From a virus: 64,000 nt of DNA. The stretch is taken from positions 1-64,000 of the IMG/VR virus record IMGVR_UViG_3300023284_001411; one strand, 5' to 3'. A model generated the notes under the pieces. That model was not told where the DNA came from. It did no database searches and saw only the letters and a program-made list of their open reading frames with translations. The position numbers and the translations under genes are program-made. Below are positions 25,065 to 39,309 of this stretch, piece by piece. Numbering within the stretch: position 1 is the stretch's first letter; the number at the start of each line of letters is the position of its first letter.

Positions 25065-25438
25065 TTTCTAACCTCCTTATTTGAGCTCTGAAAACGGGAC
25101 GGATGAGGTATAACCAAGCAATCCACGTTCCCGCACGTGACCCGGTCCAGGGGCTTGGGGTCAGCGTAGAAGGCCGCGGCCACGAGCCCGCCCATGAGGA
25201 TCAGGCGGTCGCCGGTCCTTCGGCAGTAGTCCATGAGCTCGTACGCCGTGCCGGCGGCCCGCGGGGCGTCCCAACCCTCCCCGGGCTCAAGGAGATTGAC
25301 GAAGGTGTACCGGTCCAGGTCCCCGACCATGGCCGTCAGCTGGTCCCGGGCCTTGCCCTCGGGAATGGCCGAGTAAAACGGGCTCAGCTTGTGGATGATG
25401 CTGGACGACTGGACGCGCTCACCGACGAGGTAGATCAC
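25043..25438 (-). CDS. Uracil-DNA glycosylase-superfamily-like protein
   Basis: 131 aa from a GTG (25438) that shares GTGA with the Ro stop, so it should be translationally coupled to the Ro gene. The pattern is UDG-like: FVNLLEPGEGWDAPRAAGTA (N-L-x-x-P), a central hydrophobic strand RLILMGGLVAAAFYAD (L-x-G-x-x-V-A-x-x-F) and CLVIPHPSRFQSSN (P-H-P-S motif with a following Asn). It is shorter than canonical UDGs and lacks a clear catalytic G-E-A-P-G. It could be a repair enzyme or a non-catalytic relative. Confidence 0.6.
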   Translation of the reverse strand: MIYLVGERVQSSSIIHKLSPFYSAIPEGKARDQLTAMVGDLDRYTFVNLLEPGEGWDAPRAAGTAYELMDYCRRTGDRLILMGGLVAAAFYADPKPLDRVTCGNVDCLVIPHPSRFQSSNKEVRKWVEEFC

Positions 25439-26958
25439 CCCGTCACGAACTCCCGCAGCACGGACGGCACCGAAGGATCGAAGCCCACGACGTCCAGCAT
25501 CCCCGGGTCGTTGGGGTCGGCGATGGAGAAGTTGTTCGCCAACATGGACACGACGATCAGTTTCGCGTTGGGATTGAGCTTTCGGCGGTACTTGTCGAGC
25601 GCGGCCTTCGGGTGAATGCCGCCGGCCCATGTCTGGTTGTCCGTGTAGACCACGAAGGCATCGACCTCGATGTTCTTGCGGAGCGCATAGGTCATCGGCT
25701 GCGCGCAGTCCGTCCCGCCGAAGGGAAGTTTCGACGTCTTCCGCAGGACCTCGGTATAGGTCATGTCCCGAGTCACCGAGAGCGGTGAGAATATGTGGGT
25801 GAACGCCATGGGCACGCACAGCGGCTCAGTCCTCATAGTCACCAGGAGCATGGCCGCCGCGGCCTCTCGGCAAGTGACCCCGACGACGCCGGCACAGTCG
25901 GCCCAGGTCATGGAGCCCGAGACGTCCAGGCCCAGGAGGAAGCGCTTCCCGGACGGCTTTACCTGGTCGAAGGACAGGCTGAAGGCCTCCTCGACCGCGG
26001 CCGAGATACCCGCGTCCACTTCCCATTTGAGGCTACCTCGCACGCCCTTTCCCTGCTTGTAGGTCTTGAGGGCCGAGAGCAGCTGGATCGGGTGAATACG
26101 GGACCTCTTGATCAGTACCGTGTCCGTCAGCCGGTTTTCGACGATCTTGTTCGCGTCCCAGCGTCCAGGACCCAGGACCTCCCGCGCCGAGAGCGCGCCG
26201 AGGTGCTTGAGGGTCGCCTGGTAGGGCATGAAAGGCAAGAGGGCCTGCCAAACGTCCGTCCGCTTCTTGAGCTCAGGGGTCAGCATCTCATGGGAGATGC
26301 GGCCCGACTCCTTGATCAGCTGGATACACTCGTCGAGGCCCAGCCCTTCGAAGGGGTCGTTCCGTCCCTGGACAATGGCCCGAAAGAGGTGGTTGAGGCG
26401 CCCATTCTTCGGGTGCGTTAGCCGCAGGAGGTCGCGATGTGACCAGCCCTCGCGCTGGATGTATTTCAAGCGCTGATAGTCGACATTCTCCGTGGTTTTC
26501 GACAGATACCAGCCCCGGATCATGCGCCGCGGCCGGCGTCCCCAGCCGCGGAGCTCATTGACGTAGTGGGCGAAGCGGAAGAGGTGAAAGCCCGTGCGGA
26601 CGGTGTTGTTGAAACGGTTTTCAACTATTCGCGCCGCCCGAGGGCTCAACGTACAGAGGGCCAGGGACAGCATGACCGGGTCCGGGCGCGCTGCACGGCC
26701 CTGGTTCCAGATGTCGCAGATCTCCTCCGCTGTTCGCTCAGGATCCTCGGCGAGGCACTCGTGGATCGCCTTCAGGTTCTCGCGAACGAGCGGCCCTTCC
26801 TTGGTGTAGTACGTCCCTCCCTCAGCGCCCAGGATCAAGAACCGGCGGAGCCGTTCGAACGGGTCGACGGTAAAAGAGAACCCTCCCGCGCTGTTTTCAA
26901 CTTGACCCGGGAGGGCCTCACTCTGGGGCGTGTCGAGGTGAGTGGCGTAATCCATCAT
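25435..26958 (-). CDS. rsr: Ro60/Rsr-family TROVE-vWA RNA-binding protein
   Basis: 507 aa. Residues ~25-330 form the TROVE HEAT-repeat ring (FERLRRFLILGAEGGTYY, SLALCTLSPRAARIVENRF, LPFMPYQATLKHLGALSARE). Residues ~335-507 form a von Willebrand A domain with an intact MIDAS: DVSGSM (345-350), GGTD (414-417) and YTDNQT (438-443). The segment NNFSIADPNDPGMLDVVGFD closely follows vertebrate Ro60. Ro proteins are ring-shaped and bind misfolded RNA in the cavity and Y RNA on the outside. Start ATG 26958 lies 14 nt after the U-tract of the last Y RNA (26972). A UDG-like gene is coupled downstream. Confidence 0.95.
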   Translation of the reverse strand: MMDYATHLDTPQSEALPGQVENSAGGFSFTVDPFERLRRFLILGAEGGTYYTKEGPLVRENLKAIHECLAEDPERTAEEICDIWNQGRAARPDPVMLSLALCTLSPRAARIVENRFNNTVRTGFHLFRFAHYVNELRGWGRRPRRMIRGWYLSKTTENVDYQRLKYIQREGWSHRDLLRLTHPKNGRLNHLFRAIVQGRNDPFEGLGLDECIQLIKESGRISHEMLTPELKKRTDVWQALLPFMPYQATLKHLGALSAREVLGPGRWDANKIVENRLTDTVLIKRSRIHPIQLLSALKTYKQGKGVRGSLKWEVDAGISAAVEEAFSLSFDQVKPSGKRFLLGLDVSGSMTWADCAGVVGVTCREAAAAMLLVTMRTEPLCVPMAFTHIFSPLSVTRDMTYTEVLRKTSKLPFGGTDCAQPMTYALRKNIEVDAFVVYTDNQTWAGGIHPKAALDKYRRKLNPNAKLIVVSMLANNFSIADPNDPGMLDVVGFDPSVPSVLREFVTG

Positions 26959-26971
26959 CCGTCCTTTCGAG

Positions 26972-27112
26972 AAAAATGCCGAGCAAGTTTGTGAACGCAG
27001 TTTAATAACTGGCGCTCTCGGCTGTCTGAGCTACCCCGACTCAATTGCCGGGGGCAGGTTTCGCACCTGCGACCTCCAGTTCCATGATAATCTACATTCG
27101 TCGGCTCAGCAA
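26972..27112 (-). ncRNA. Y RNA 1 (YrlA-like, with permuted tRNA module)
   Basis: Lower stem GCTGAGC/GCTCGGC with CCGA on the 5' side and ACAAACTTG on the 3' side, then TTTTT: the Ro-binding signature of Y RNAs. Upper stem AATGTAG/CTGCGTT. Inside lies a tRNA-like module in permuted order: half anticodon stem ACTGG, AGGTC, T-arm GCAGG-TGCGAAA-CCTGC, acceptor CCCCGGC, 6-nt linker, acceptor GTCGGGG, D-arm GCTC...GAGC, half anticodon stem CCAGT. All stems pair. It ends 14 nt before the Ro gene. Confidence 0.85.
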
Positions 27113-27121
27113 AACCTATCC

Positions 27122-27249
27122 AAAAAGAACCGAGCAAGGTGTGACCGTAGGATGTGCCTATGCCATTTGGCGACATCGCGCAAGGCAATGACGGGATTCG
27201 AACCCGCATTCTTCGTGAAAAGATAACCTACAATCGTCGGCTCGGTGAC
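27122..27249 (-). ncRNA. Y RNA 2 (YrlA-like, with permuted tRNA module)
   Basis: Lower stem ACCGAGC/GCTCGGT, with CCGACG opposite ACACCTTG and a TTCTTTTT end. Upper stem GATTGTAGG/CCTACGGTC (9 bp with G-U pairs). The loop carries a textbook T-arm, GCGGGTTCGAATCCCGT, then acceptor strand CATTGCC, a short turn, the opposite acceptor strand GCGATG and a D-arm GCC...GGC. The tRNA halves are circularly permuted, so it is not an ordinary tRNA gene. No full anticodon arm forms. Confidence 0.85.
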
Positions 27250-27261
27250 AGTACTGCAAAA

Positions 27262-27333
27262 CAAAAAGCCGAACAAGTTTGTAGCCGAGGGGGATACTTT
27301 ATGATGGTAACCCTCAGCCATCGGCTCGGCTAA
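27262..27333 (-). ncRNA. Y RNA 3 (short hairpin type)
   Basis: About 70 nt. Lower stem AGCCGAG/TTCGGCT with CCGATG opposite ACAAACTTG. Upper stem GCTGAGGG/CCCTCGGC (8 bp), loop opening with TTACC, TTTTT at the 3' end. It keeps the Ro-binding stem but lacks the tRNA-like module. Compensatory differences from copies 4 and 5 support the fold. Confidence 0.8.
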
Positions 27334-27352
27334 ACAGATTGGGCTCTAAATC

Positions 27353-27428
27353 AAAAACCGAACAAGGTAACGGTCGAAGGGAAAAACTTTCCATATAAAG
27401 GTAACCTTCAACCAATCGGCTCGGTTTA
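27353..27428 (-). ncRNA. Y RNA 4 (short hairpin type)
   Basis: Lower stem AACCGAG/TTCGGTT, internal loop CCGATTG opposite GTTACCTTG. Upper stem GGTTGAAGG/CCTTCGACC, loop opening TTACC, then TTTTTG. It differs from its neighbours at many stem positions but keeps pairing. Same orientation as the Ro gene. Confidence 0.8.
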
Positions 27429-27439
27429 TCTGAATGTCA

Positions 27440-27510
27440 AAGAAGGTCGAGCAAGTTTGTGACCAAAGGGTAAATGGTATGCTGATAACCTCCAGCCTTC
27501 GGCTCGACTG
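27440..27510 (-). ncRNA. Y RNA 5 (short hairpin type, promoter-proximal)
   Basis: Lower stem GTCGAG/CTCGAC, internal loop CCGAA opposite ACAAACTTG. Upper stem GGCTGGAGG/CCTTTGGTC with several G-U pairs, loop opening TTATC, 3' CTTCTTT. It begins about 6 nt after the -10 of the promoter at 27516-27545, so its 5' end may be the transcription start. Confidence 0.8.
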
Positions 27511-27515
27511 ATCCC

Positions 27516-27545
27516 AGTGTACCATCATCAGGGGTCCGAGGTCAA
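27516..27545 (-). promoter_or_regulatory. Promoter of the Y RNA-Ro locus (TTGACC-18-TACACT)
   Basis: Minus-strand -35 TTGACC at 27540-27545, 18-nt spacer, -10 TACACT at 27516-27521. The -35 overlaps the stop region of the exonuclease gene. No equally good promoter separates the five RNAs, so they and the Ro gene may form one transcript that is processed. Confidence 0.7.
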
Positions 27546-28234
27546 CCCTTTTTCTCGAGCAATTCCTTCTCGCGCTCCAAGGTGAGCTCGCCGGTCATGA
27601 CCCGGGTTCGCAGGAACACGGCGTAGGTGTCCTCCACGTCCCGCGCACAGTAGTCGTAGATCGTCTCGAGTTGGCCCTTGAGCCAGAGGCCGTAGACATC
27701 CTTCCCGACCGTGGCGCCCTTCCCAGGCCTTCCCACGACCCGCGCCAGTAGGTCCAGGCCGCCCGTGCAGCGGAAAGCGCCGAACTCCGTCATCCACTCC
27801 ATCAGATCGATCCGGTCAGAGGTGAACCGGTAGCGGTAACCGAACTTCGGGCCGGCGTAGTAGGCCGGGCACGATACACCGTACCGGAAGGCTGTCATGG
27901 ACAGGAGGGGGAGGTCGAAGCCCCGCCCGTTGAAGTCCACGAGGATCGGGCGATGCTTCTGGACACCTTCCCAGAAGCGCTGGGCAATCTCCTGAGCGGA
28001 ACCCTTAATGACGCCCGTCTTCTCGATCTTGAACCCCGCATCCAGGGCCAGGAAGGCCACGCAGATCGGTACCTGGTAAGTGACCGGGATGAAGTCAGAG
28101 CCCTTGTCCGCGAGGAGGTCCGCCTGGTATTGGCCGACGGTCTCGGAGCCACTCCAATCCTCGGGGTAGCCCCGGGAGTCCCGGATCAGTGTCCCGTCGG
28201 GCCGCGACTCGCAGTCGTAGACAAGGTACCTCAT
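27542..28234 (-). CDS. DEDD-family 3'-5' exonuclease
   Basis: 230 aa from ATG 28234, overlapping the upstream stop as ATGA. Exonuclease motif I is LVYDCESR (Asp7, Glu9). Motif II is DFNGRGFDLPLL, the N-x-x-x-F-D core. Motif III is YCARDVEDTYAVFL (Y-x-x-x-D). The arrangement matches stand-alone PolB-type 3'-5' exonucleases. It is separate from the exonuclease domain fused to the family A polymerase. A role in nucleic acid degradation or repair is likely. It is the last gene before the Y RNA promoter. Confidence 0.85.
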   Translation of the reverse strand: MRYLVYDCESRPDGTLIRDSRGYPEDWSGSETVGQYQADLLADKGSDFIPVTYQVPICVAFLALDAGFKIEKTGVIKGSAQEIAQRFWEGVQKHRPILVDFNGRGFDLPLLSMTAFRYGVSCPAYYAGPKFGYRYRFTSDRIDLMEWMTEFGAFRCTGGLDLLARVVGRPGKGATVGKDVYGLWLKGQLETIYDYCARDVEDTYAVFLRTRVMTGELTLEREKELLEKKG

Positions 28235-29316
28235 TCCGGAAACCTTCCAAACTTGACACCATCGAGCCTGAACCAAGGAGACTTCACATCCAAGGGATTA
28301 CCGATCACGATCATCTCGAGAAAGTCACGAAACAACGGCTCATAATCTGCCTTGGGAAGAAAAACCTCATTCGGTTTTGGGTCACAGGCCAGGGCCTTCG
28401 CCACTGTTCTCCAACCGTTCTTGGTATCCCCGCTCGAGCGCTCCATCCACTCATCAAGATCTCCAGCCTTAGCGTGCTCCACGAGCTCGTCGAGCATCGT
28501 CATAGTCATGGGCTGATGGAGTTCAAATTCTCCGCCGCATTTGAACAACACCGCCTGAGCGCAGTCGCCATCGTGCAGCGGCTTCGACTCGGGGTTCTCC
28601 GGGTTACCGGTCCACCACACATAGCCACTGGTCACAGCCATCCCGCAGTGGCCGCACGGGCCATGCCCCATGTGTGGGGGAGGGCCGAGCTGGCCGACCT
28701 GGCCGACCTGGTCAGCTGTAAAGAAAAACTTATCCGGCTCAAACGGAGCGTCCTTGGGGAAGTCGAGAGATAAAGTACCATCACCCTCATTCGACCGAAA
28801 CTCAACGCCACTGATTTTGACTTTCGCGGAAGTGGACGCCACATCAGGATCATCCATCCGTATAGCATGCTCCACCAACTGGTCGAATGCCTTGGGTTCC
28901 ATGTAAACGACCGAGGGCTTCGGATAGGCCTGGGTATGGGAGAGGATGAAGTGCCCCATGCTATATATCTCAATCGCGGGGGTGGTGTCCACAGTATGAA
29001 CGGAGTTCCCATCTGTGGCTTCCGGCGCCAGGGTTTTCCCTTTCCCCACCACTCCTTCACGGATACAGGAATTACACACTTGCCCATGGAGCCGAGGAGC
29101 GTTGCCACCGCAAAACGGGCAACAGCCCTTGGCCATGACCGGATTCGACCGAAAAGCCTCCTTACCATAGTCCAGGACCTGGCCCCAGGAGTCCTTTGAC
29201 GCCTCCGCGGGCGCCCCGGCAATGTCGATCAGGGTCCGCTTCGCGCAGTCCTCGGCGTGTTGCTCGAGGGGGAGGTCCGGGTCAGAGAGTAGGCATCGAC
29301 AGCTGCAGTGTATCAT
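28231..29316 (-). CDS. Cys-rich protein with C-x-C-R-C-L-L-x-D-P module
   Basis: 361 aa. The N-terminus IHCSCRCLLSDPDLPLEQHA followed by EDCA is shared with the proteins at 20583-20840 and 34900-36753. A second Cys cluster, CCPFCGGNAPRLHGQVCNSC, is at ~75-95 and a third, HGPCGHCGMAVTSGYVW, at ~215. The rest is unassigned. Repeated zinc modules plus acidic helices suggest a scaffold or host-protein-binding role. The start overlaps the upstream stop. Confidence 0.6.
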   Translation of the reverse strand: MIHCSCRCLLSDPDLPLEQHAEDCAKRTLIDIAGAPAEASKDSWGQVLDYGKEAFRSNPVMAKGCCPFCGGNAPRLHGQVCNSCIREGVVGKGKTLAPEATDGNSVHTVDTTPAIEIYSMGHFILSHTQAYPKPSVVYMEPKAFDQLVEHAIRMDDPDVASTSAKVKISGVEFRSNEGDGTLSLDFPKDAPFEPDKFFFTADQVGQVGQLGPPPHMGHGPCGHCGMAVTSGYVWWTGNPENPESKPLHDGDCAQAVLFKCGGEFELHQPMTMTMLDELVEHAKAGDLDEWMERSSGDTKNGWRTVAKALACDPKPNEVFLPKADYEPLFRDFLEMIVIGNPLDVKSPWFRLDGVKFGRFPE

Positions 29317-38071: not shown

Positions 38072-39309
38072 AGGTTTTCTTTGATGTCCTTTCGAATTTT
38101 GAGGAGGTCTATGGCGACTTCGTCCAGGCGATTTAGGATCGACCCCTTGCTCTTGTCCACTGGCGGAGGAACAACGGCCTCCGGCGGCCTGACGTCGGAG
38201 GAGTAGGCCGCTATTCTCATGCCGTCAAATGTCACCATCTTCGGTCCAAAGTTGGCGTAGATGGTCCCCTTCTCGAAGTACCGCTGGGCGACGTGCTCGT
38301 GAATGAAGGTAAAGCGCCCGAGGGGCTCGCCCCAGTCCTGTTGGTACCCGTCCCAGTCGTTGAAGTGGCCATACGAATACCCGAGGTAGAACGTCGGCCC
38401 GTCAACCAAGAGCGAGCAGTGGTAGTCGAAGATCTGCCGCCTGGGCTGGTCGTCCTCCGTCCGTCGCGACATCTTGAAGAACGGCAGCCCGAGCACGTTG
38501 ACGACTTCGTCGATCGATCTGAACTGGGTCCGTACCTCCTCGGGGGTGTAGTACCCTTGGACGGACGGCGCGAGCCACCCGCGGCCCTCGGACATGGCTC
38601 CGCGGTAGACTCGGACGAGATCCATCTCCACCGGGGCGATAGTCTTTGCGATGTTGGGGATCAGCAACTTCTCCGGGCCGAATTCCCTATCGACAGCAAA
38701 ACGAAGCGCCCGGGCCATGGCGAGCTTGTCGTTGATTTCCTCCGCGAGGGTGAATCGCTTCCCGGTCCGCGGGTTGAGCGGCGGTCTCTTCTTCCGCGTG
38801 GCGACCGACCGCGCCTCCCAGGGCTTCTCGCCCCAGCCGGCGTTGTCGACCCAAAACCCATTCAATTCAGGAGATGCACGGAAGACACGAAGAACAGACT
38901 CCACGAAGAAGTCGATGAAGCCCGGGTGTCCGGTGTCGTAGACCCAGGCGTGGTGTTTGTCGAGGTTGTCTTGCACGACGCGGTTGGGGCCAACGCAGCG
39001 ATTCTCGCGCTTCAGGACGCCGATGGGCTCGTGCAGGTAGAACTCCTCCGGTACAGCGTCCTTCTCGAACGGGTTTCCTGCCCAGTTGCGGGGGTTGCAG
39101 TATTCCGTCAGGAGCGCGTCCGGCCAAAGACCGTGAAGATGCTCGTGGACATGCGGGTGAGTGACGCCCTTGCGCGAGCCCCAGACGGGGTGCAGCGCGA
39201 CGGAGTGCTCGCCGACGTCGGCGAGGTACTTAACCGCCTCGTCCGGGAGTGGCTCCGTCGCGTAATGTTTCTTCGCGATGTACTTCGACAGTAGCTTAAA
39301 AAGGTTCAT
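38068..39309 (-). CDS. Putative glycoside hydrolase-like TIM-barrel protein (GHL15-like)
   Basis: 413 aa from ATG 39309, the first start after the lipoprotein stop. FFVESVLRVFRASPELNGFW followed by VDNAGWG resembles the G-x-W/F-x-D-N strand of GHL15-type hydrolases. Late segments YFEKGTIYANFGPKMVTFDG and EMDLVRVYRGAMSEGRG fit strands near the barrel's C-terminus. Acidic residues in WVDNAGWGE and MDLVRVYR are catalytic candidates. No signal peptide. It could degrade host glycans (a lysin or depolymerase); the call rests on a few motifs. Confidence 0.5.
   Translation of the reverse strand: MNLFKLLSKYIAKKHYATEPLPDEAVKYLADVGEHSVALHPVWGSRKGVTHPHVHEHLHGLWPDALLTEYCNPRNWAGNPFEKDAVPEEFYLHEPIGVLKRENRCVGPNRVVQDNLDKHHAWVYDTGHPGFIDFFVESVLRVFRASPELNGFWVDNAGWGEKPWEARSVATRKKRPPLNPRTGKRFTLAEEINDKLAMARALRFAVDREFGPEKLLIPNIAKTIAPVEMDLVRVYRGAMSEGRGWLAPSVQGYYTPEEVRTQFRSIDEVVNVLGLPFFKMSRRTEDDQPRRQIFDYHCSLLVDGPTFYLGYSYGHFNDWDGYQQDWGEPLGRFTFIHEHVAQRYFEKGTIYANFGPKMVTFDGMRIAAYSSDVRPPEAVVPPPVDKSKGSILNRLDEVAIDLLKIRKDIKENL

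What the first reader, a model, noticed from the sequence alone, without database searches (positions are those of the whole stretch)
27262..27510. Three minimal hairpin-type Y RNAs with compensatory stem changes
Units 3, 4 and 5 are 70-76 nt and have only the Ro-binding stem, an upper stem and a loop opening TTAYC. Their upper stems (GCTGAGGG/CCCTCGGC, GGTTGAAGG/CCTTCGACC, GGCTGGAGG/CCTTTGGTC) differ in sequence but stay paired. The loop start resembles GUUAUC of human Y1 RNA. They would be among the smallest Y RNAs and may act as decoys that close the Ro surface, or as gates without an effector module.
Basis: partly seen in the sequence, partly recalled or inferred. Interest (0 to 1): 0.75.

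Follow-up and report, generated by a model that had tools for sequence, protein, structure and literature searches.

The report
Three short phage Y RNAs
Upstream of a phage gene for a Ro60-like protein lie five small RNA genes, three of them bare 65-71-nucleotide hairpins; related hairpins occur beside Ro genes in many other phages and bacteria and look more like animal Y RNAs than like the tRNA-bearing Y RNAs usually described from bacteria.

Summary
On the minus strand, co-directional with an intact Ro60/Rsr gene (26958-25435), five Y RNA units run 27509-26977. U5, U4 and U3 are minimal hairpins: 7-bp lower stem, bulged C, CGA/UUG, 9-bp upper stem, loop opening UUAYC. U2 and U1 carry a tRNA-like module in the same scaffold. 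A covariance model trained only on other loci finds U3, U5 and U4 as its three best hits in the window (E 4e-11 to 4e-7). The upper stem, not used to select units, covaries strongly (0 of 500 shuffles). Similar short units lie beside rsr in 111 of 175 sampled loci. In 309 whole genomes of three bacterial classes the model hits 11; ten have rsr adjacent and the eleventh is an array cut off near a contig end. Several bacterial units exceed Rfam's cut-off for nematode stem-bulge RNAs. So these are bona fide Y RNAs of a widespread tRNA-less class, not a phage oddity. Best mechanism: they bind and gate Rsr through the lower stem without the tRNA-like tether, competing with U1/U2. Expression, binding and gating were not tested.

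The parts
27445..27509 (-). U5, minimal Y RNA core (65 nt), first unit of the array; T-rich stretch follows
   Evidence: R2 model without window units: 42.4 bits, E 6.9e-9; nematode sbRNA model 22.7 bits, below its cut-off
27356..27426 (-). U4, minimal Y RNA core (71 nt); followed by TTTTT
   Evidence: R2: 35.6 bits, E 4.4e-7; fold z -3.57
27267..27331 (-). U3, minimal Y RNA core (65 nt); followed by TTTTTGTTTT
   Evidence: R2: 50.8 bits, E 4.2e-11; Rfam Y_RNA 30.4 bits, E 4e-4, below cut-off; fold z -3.75
27129..27246 (-). U2, Y RNA with a tRNA-like module (canonical T arm GCGGGTTCGAATCCCGT, D-arm-like segment) in the loop of the same scaffold
   Evidence: sequence; nematode sbRNA model 26.3 bits and partial YrlA match 18.1 bits, both below cut-off; model R3, which includes it
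26977..27111 (-). U1, YrlA-like Y RNA with a tRNA-like module, next to rsr
   Evidence: Rfam YrlA 29 bits, E 4e-4, below its cut-off of 69; lower stem pairs over 7 bp; model R3, which includes it
25435..26958 (-). rsr, Ro60/TROVE protein of 507 aa; MIDAS-type DVSGSM motif and residues K165, R169, H182 kept
   Evidence: Pfam vWA_Ro60 4.6e-64 and TROVE 5.1e-27; PDB 9nen, 2nvo, 1yvp at E 1e-97 or better; alignment A1
27516..27545 (-). sigma-70-like promoter TTGACC-18-TACACT, placed so that transcription would start near the 5' end of U5
   Evidence: consensus scan, 1 found against 0.4 expected in shuffles; weak

Best explanation
U3, U4 and U5 are real short Y RNAs: trans-acting noncoding RNAs whose lower stem (7 bp, bulged C, CGA/UUG) is bound by the phage's own Rsr. 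Shown computationally: the architecture, stem covariation across phages and bacteria, restriction to rsr loci, and conservation in this Rsr of residues aligned with the Y RNA site of vertebrate Ro60. Inferred: one promoter before U5 reads the array and rsr together; the T-rich stretch after each unit helps set its 3' end; Rsr binding stabilises the units. Inferred mechanism: they occupy the Y RNA site and restrict substrate entry to the Rsr ring (gating, as described for the Deinococcus Y RNA), but lacking the tRNA-like module of U1/U2 they do not tether PNPase or mimic tRNA. The ratio of short to tRNA-bearing units would then set how much Rsr is merely gated and how much is tethered.
For: Non-circular model hits. 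Upper-stem covariation 0.607 against 0.230 in shuffles, 0 of 500, and 0.525 against 0.204 without the window units. All 243 R1 hits at E<=1 in the window and loci lie on the rsr strand. Whole-genome scans: R2 hits 11 of 309 genomes, ten with rsr adjacent and one array cut near a contig end. Rsr keeps K165, R169, H182, aligned with vertebrate K170, R174, H187; the H187S mutant of Ro60 lacks mouse Y3 binding (PMC11277228). The lower stem matches the published Ro60 site, 7-bp helix with a single bulged C (PMC4726728). Units also lie downstream of rsr in some loci, which favours free RNAs. U1 and U2 give the tRNA-bearing contrast within the same array. The tRNA-like domain is reported to bind PNPase (PMC8394870).
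Against: No expression, binding or gating data for this phage. U5's predicted minimum-energy fold is not the Y fold. The promoter match is weak and none was found for the other units. The window's units stay below Rfam's curated cut-offs. Short loops might still bind PNPase or another partner.
Confidence: 0.65

Rival explanations
1. Cis-acting leader elements: Rsr binds the hairpins in its own mRNA leader and controls its own translation or transcript decay; free short RNAs, if any, are by-products.
For: The array lies between the last upstream gene and the rsr start codon on the same strand, with U1 ending 18 nt before it; in the sampled loci 145 of 167 short units lie before the rsr start.
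Against: 22 of 167 short units lie downstream of rsr and some 1-2 kb upstream beyond other genes. Known bacterial Y RNAs are free stable RNAs bound by Rsr (PMC4726728).
Confidence: 0.15
2. Short Y RNAs with an effector of their own: the loop with the conserved UUAYC start binds a host or phage protein (PNPase, another RNase or a replication factor), so they are alternative tethers, not gates alone.
For: UUAYC in 107 of 122 non-redundant units against 5.2 expected after shuffling (partly circular because the model was trained on it). The motif is also kept ahead of tRNA-like T arms upstream of rsr, 161 of 244 against 7 of 46 on the other strand. In nematode sbRNAs UUAUC is needed for DNA replication activity in vitro (PMC4726728).
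Against: Apart from UUAYC the loop is poorly conserved; the motif may serve Rsr binding or folding instead.
Confidence: 0.17
3. Degenerate leftovers: tRNA-bearing Y RNAs that lost their module and are decaying.
For: They neighbour tRNA-bearing units with the same scaffold.
Against: Covariation, a narrow length range (10-90% quantiles 62-74 nt) and recurrence in many phyla of bacteria and in phages.
Confidence: 0.03

Closest known systems
Metazoan Y RNAs (Rfam RF00019) and nematode stem-bulge RNAs (RF01656, ceN72-3/ceN74-2)
   Same: 7-bp lower stem with a bulged C, about 9-bp upper stem, loop opening UUAUC, no tRNA-like module. Eight bacterial or phage units exceed the RF01656 cut-off.
   Different: Encoded by phages and bacteria, in arrays beside rsr; shorter (core 65-71 nt against 84-112 nt in human, PMC8973356 abstract); the window's own units score below both cut-offs; descent from a common ancestor is not shown.
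Bacterial YrlA Y RNA (Rfam RF02553)
   Same: Ro-binding terminal stem and linkage to rsr; U1 and U2 of the same array carry the tRNA-like module.
   Different: U3, U4 and U5 have no T arm or D arm and are 65-71 nt, against 90-150 nt with a tRNA-like domain (PMC8394870).
Deinococcus Rsr-Y RNA-PNPase complex (RYPER)
   Same: An Rsr and Y RNAs, with U1/U2 as possible tethers (gate and tether described in PMC4726728).
   Different: No PNPase-type or RtcB gene in this record; host PNPase would be needed; short units lack the tether.
Y RNAs near Ro60 genes in bacteria and phages (Chen et al. 2014, RNA 20:1715)
   Same: Phage Y RNAs as such are known: PMC12282133 cites this paper for Y RNAs in bacteria and mycobacteriophages. 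From memory, its abstract says at least one Y RNA per species has a tRNA-like domain, which implies that others may lack it.
   Different: The paper is not held, so I could not check whether it describes the short class, its UUAYC loop or its likeness to sbRNAs. One genome (L154) shows only two short units with my models.

Membership tests
Y RNA (general) | Terminal lower stem of about 7 bp with a single bulged C and a bulge opposite (Ro60 site) | tested here: met
   all three units; definition from PMC4726728
Y RNA (general) | Upper stem kept by compensatory change | tested here: met
   covariation 0.607 against 0.230, 0 of 500 shuffles
Y RNA (general) | Encoded beside a Ro60/Rsr gene (bacterial and phage Y RNAs) | tested here: met
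   rsr downstream on the same strand; class scans
Y RNA (general) | Bound and stabilised by Ro60/Rsr | not testable with these tools
   biochemical assay needed; only conserved Rsr residues seen
Y RNA (general) | Reaches Rfam Y_RNA gathering score | tested here: not met
   U3 30.4 bits against 38
YrlA (RF02553) | tRNA-like module with T and D arms | tested here: not met
   absent from U3, U4, U5; present in U2 and U1
Nematode sbRNA (RF01656) | Bulged-C lower stem, nine-bp upper stem, UUAUC opening the loop | tested here: met
   U5 exactly, U3 and U4 with UUACC
Nematode sbRNA (RF01656) | Reaches the Rfam gathering score | tested here: not met
   U4 20.9 and U5 22.7 bits against 38; met by units of eight other loci
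Nematode sbRNA (RF01656) | Supports initiation of chromosomal DNA replication | not testable with these tools
   function reported for nematode sbRNAs only (PMC4450293)

The most novel reading that the evidence does not exclude
The short tRNA-less Y RNAs of phages and bacteria are homologues of metazoan Y RNAs and sbRNAs, so the animal Ro60-Y RNP and its UUAUC loop motif derive from, or share ancestry with, a prokaryotic or phage short-Y system, and the motif's original role concerns Ro and not DNA replication.
Probability: 0.35. Interest if true: 0.78.

Novelty: new variant of a known kind. Interest (0 to 1): 0.56.

Why it matters
Bacterial Y RNAs are usually described as tRNA mimics that tether Rsr to PNPase, and as not homologous with vertebrate Y RNAs (PMC8394870, PMC4726728). 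A widespread hairpin-only class with the animal-type stem and UUAUC loop separates Ro binding from tRNA mimicry, offers natural candidates for gate-only RNAs, and bears on the origin of the animal Ro-Y particle. Mycobacterium phages of the HyRo group and Streptomyces phage BoomerJR carry such units, so it can be tested in standard laboratory hosts.

Tried and rejected
ARAGORN finds no tRNA in the window and Rfam at its gathering cut-offs finds nothing there; the assignment rests on custom models and sub-threshold Rfam hits. A single-protein search of IMG/VR found nothing, so an alignment was used. The lower-stem statistics of A3 were not used as evidence, because units were selected by that stem; R1 E-values for the window were replaced by R2, trained without it. 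Listeria phage P100, whose gp165 appears to correspond to a CKA15 protein called Rsr-like, was checked as a possible expression test: gp165 is DUF2828/DUF7788, not TROVE, and the short Y RNA model finds nothing near it. No promoter was found before U4, U3, U2 or U1. No RtcB or RNase PH-type gene was found in the 75-kb record. Detection of tRNA-bearing units by pattern is rough, so counts of loci with only short units are not relied on. Chen 2013, Chen 2014, Wang 2018, Sim and Wolin 2018 and Sim 2020 are not held, so prior description of the short class could not be excluded.

Full report
What is there. The window is part of a 75,452-base IMG/VR virus record, a tailed phage by its terminase, head, tail, primase, polymerase and helicase proteins. 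An intact rsr gene lies at 25435-26958 on the minus strand. Its 5' leader, up to a PolB-type exonuclease gene (27542-28276), holds five units in transcription order U5, U4, U3, U2, U1. U2 carries a canonical T arm, U1 a T arm with a variant loop, and both a D-arm-like segment, inside the same scaffold.

Is it more than chance. Rfam finds nothing at its gathering cut-offs, but at E-value level Y_RNA matches U3 (30.4 bits, E 4e-4), YrlA matches U1 (29 bits, E 4e-4) and the nematode sbRNA model matches U2, U4 and U5 (E 0.004 to 0.11), all on the minus strand. A scan for the core (7-bp stem, CCGA, TTG) in the fetched rsr loci showed many similar short units. Twenty-four units were aligned (A3). 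The upper stem had not been used in choosing them, so its covariation is independent evidence: score 0.607 against 0.230 +/- 0.032 in shuffles, 0 of 500, and at most 0.34 in slid registers. Without the window's units it is 0.525 against 0.204 +/- 0.032. The whole structure gives 15 of 19 pairs with two-sided changes, but its lower-stem part is circular. A model from the other 21 units (R2) finds U3, U5 and U4 as the top three hits of the 64-kb window at 4.2e-11, 6.9e-9 and 4.4e-7.

How widespread. With R1, all 243 hits at E<=1 over 1.28 Mb fall on the rsr strand. At E<0.01 and at most 85 nt there are 155 units in 111 loci (62 of 95 phage or viral, 49 of 80 genomic), 122 of them non-redundant, with a median of 67 nt; two nearly identical units of L049 have 60 nt. 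R1 was trained on some of these, so whole-genome scans are the cleaner test. In 14 genomes chosen because they carry rsr (about 81 Mb) all 15 hits at E<=0.01 coincide with the rsr loci. In 141, 150 and 18 genomes of three classes, R2 hits 3, 5 and 3 genomes. In the first two classes seven of the eight have a TROVE match close by on the same strand. The eighth, G192, holds a short unit followed by a tRNA-bearing unit that is interrupted near the contig end. In the third class one genome is the known one and the other two have an rsr gene adjacent. A few of these genomes supplied training units (G012, for example). Laboratory phages carry such units too: HyRo (short, tRNA-bearing, short), whose array is found over at least 80% of its length in 190 phage records, BoomerJR and relatives, and at lower scores BearBQ, Sparky and Sixama.

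Relation to animal Y RNAs. Units at eight of twenty loci exceed the gathering score of the nematode sbRNA family RF01656. In 141 genomes of one class that published model hits two, both beside rsr. The literature gives the vertebrate Ro60 site as a 7-bp helix with a single bulged C and a three-nucleotide bulge opposite (PMC4726728), and nematode sbRNAs as having a bulged-C lower stem, a nine-bp upper stem and UUAUC at the 5' end of the loop (PMC4450293). The short units match this plan closely. The window's own units stay below both cut-offs, and similarity of plan is not proof of descent.

How it most likely works. Shown: architecture, covariation, linkage, and an Rsr that keeps K165, R169 and H182, aligned with K170, R174 and H187 of Ro60. 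H187S Ro60 lacks mouse Y3 binding (PMC11277228); that K170 and R174 matter is from memory. Inferred: transcription from the one promoter-like site ahead of U5 (weak), 3' ends near the T-rich stretches, stabilisation by Rsr, and gating without the tRNA-like tether. The tRNA-like domain is the part reported to bind PNPase (PMC8394870). A purely cis role is less likely because units also lie downstream of rsr or 1-2 kb upstream. A loop effector cannot be excluded: the UUAYC motif is also kept ahead of tRNA-like T arms (161 of 244 against 7 of 46 on the other strand).

Verdict. The units are members of a widespread tRNA-less Y RNA class. Phage-encoded Y RNAs as such are known, and I could not read the key papers to exclude an earlier description of the short class.

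Noticed in passing
L182 (Listeria phage P100, DQ004855) about 38130-38440, minus strand: Upstream of gp165 (DUF2828/DUF7788; apparently the counterpart of CKA15_055, called Rsr-like and found in virions in PMC12282133) lie three tandem hairpins with different closing stems but a shared loop start ACAGCAAWTACTA: possibly an analogous RNA array for another Ro-like protein. The paper reports three highly transcribed unannotated regions within 2 kb upstream of the gene.
   Followed up: partly
L039, L135, L139, L162, L171, L174; phage loci L005, L006, L007, L008, L016: rsr and Y RNAs often sit inside or beside large tRNA arrays, in phages and in bacteria.
   Followed up: no
window 27542-28276; L004 1974-2615: An exonuclease gene lies directly upstream of the rsr leader in both this phage and Microbacterium phage FuzzBuster.
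   Followed up: no
HyRo-group mycobacteriophages, for example MK450425 130356-130721: The array region is annotated as one or two hypothetical protein genes in several records, probably spurious calls over Y RNAs.
   Followed up: no
L049 2668-2727 and 2780-2839: Two nearly identical 60-nt units downstream of rsr, among the shortest candidates seen.
   Followed up: no
L178 (G192 contig C25) 1-280, minus strand: A short unit followed by a tRNA-bearing unit that breaks off into unrelated, possibly transposon-derived sequence near the contig end.
   Followed up: partly
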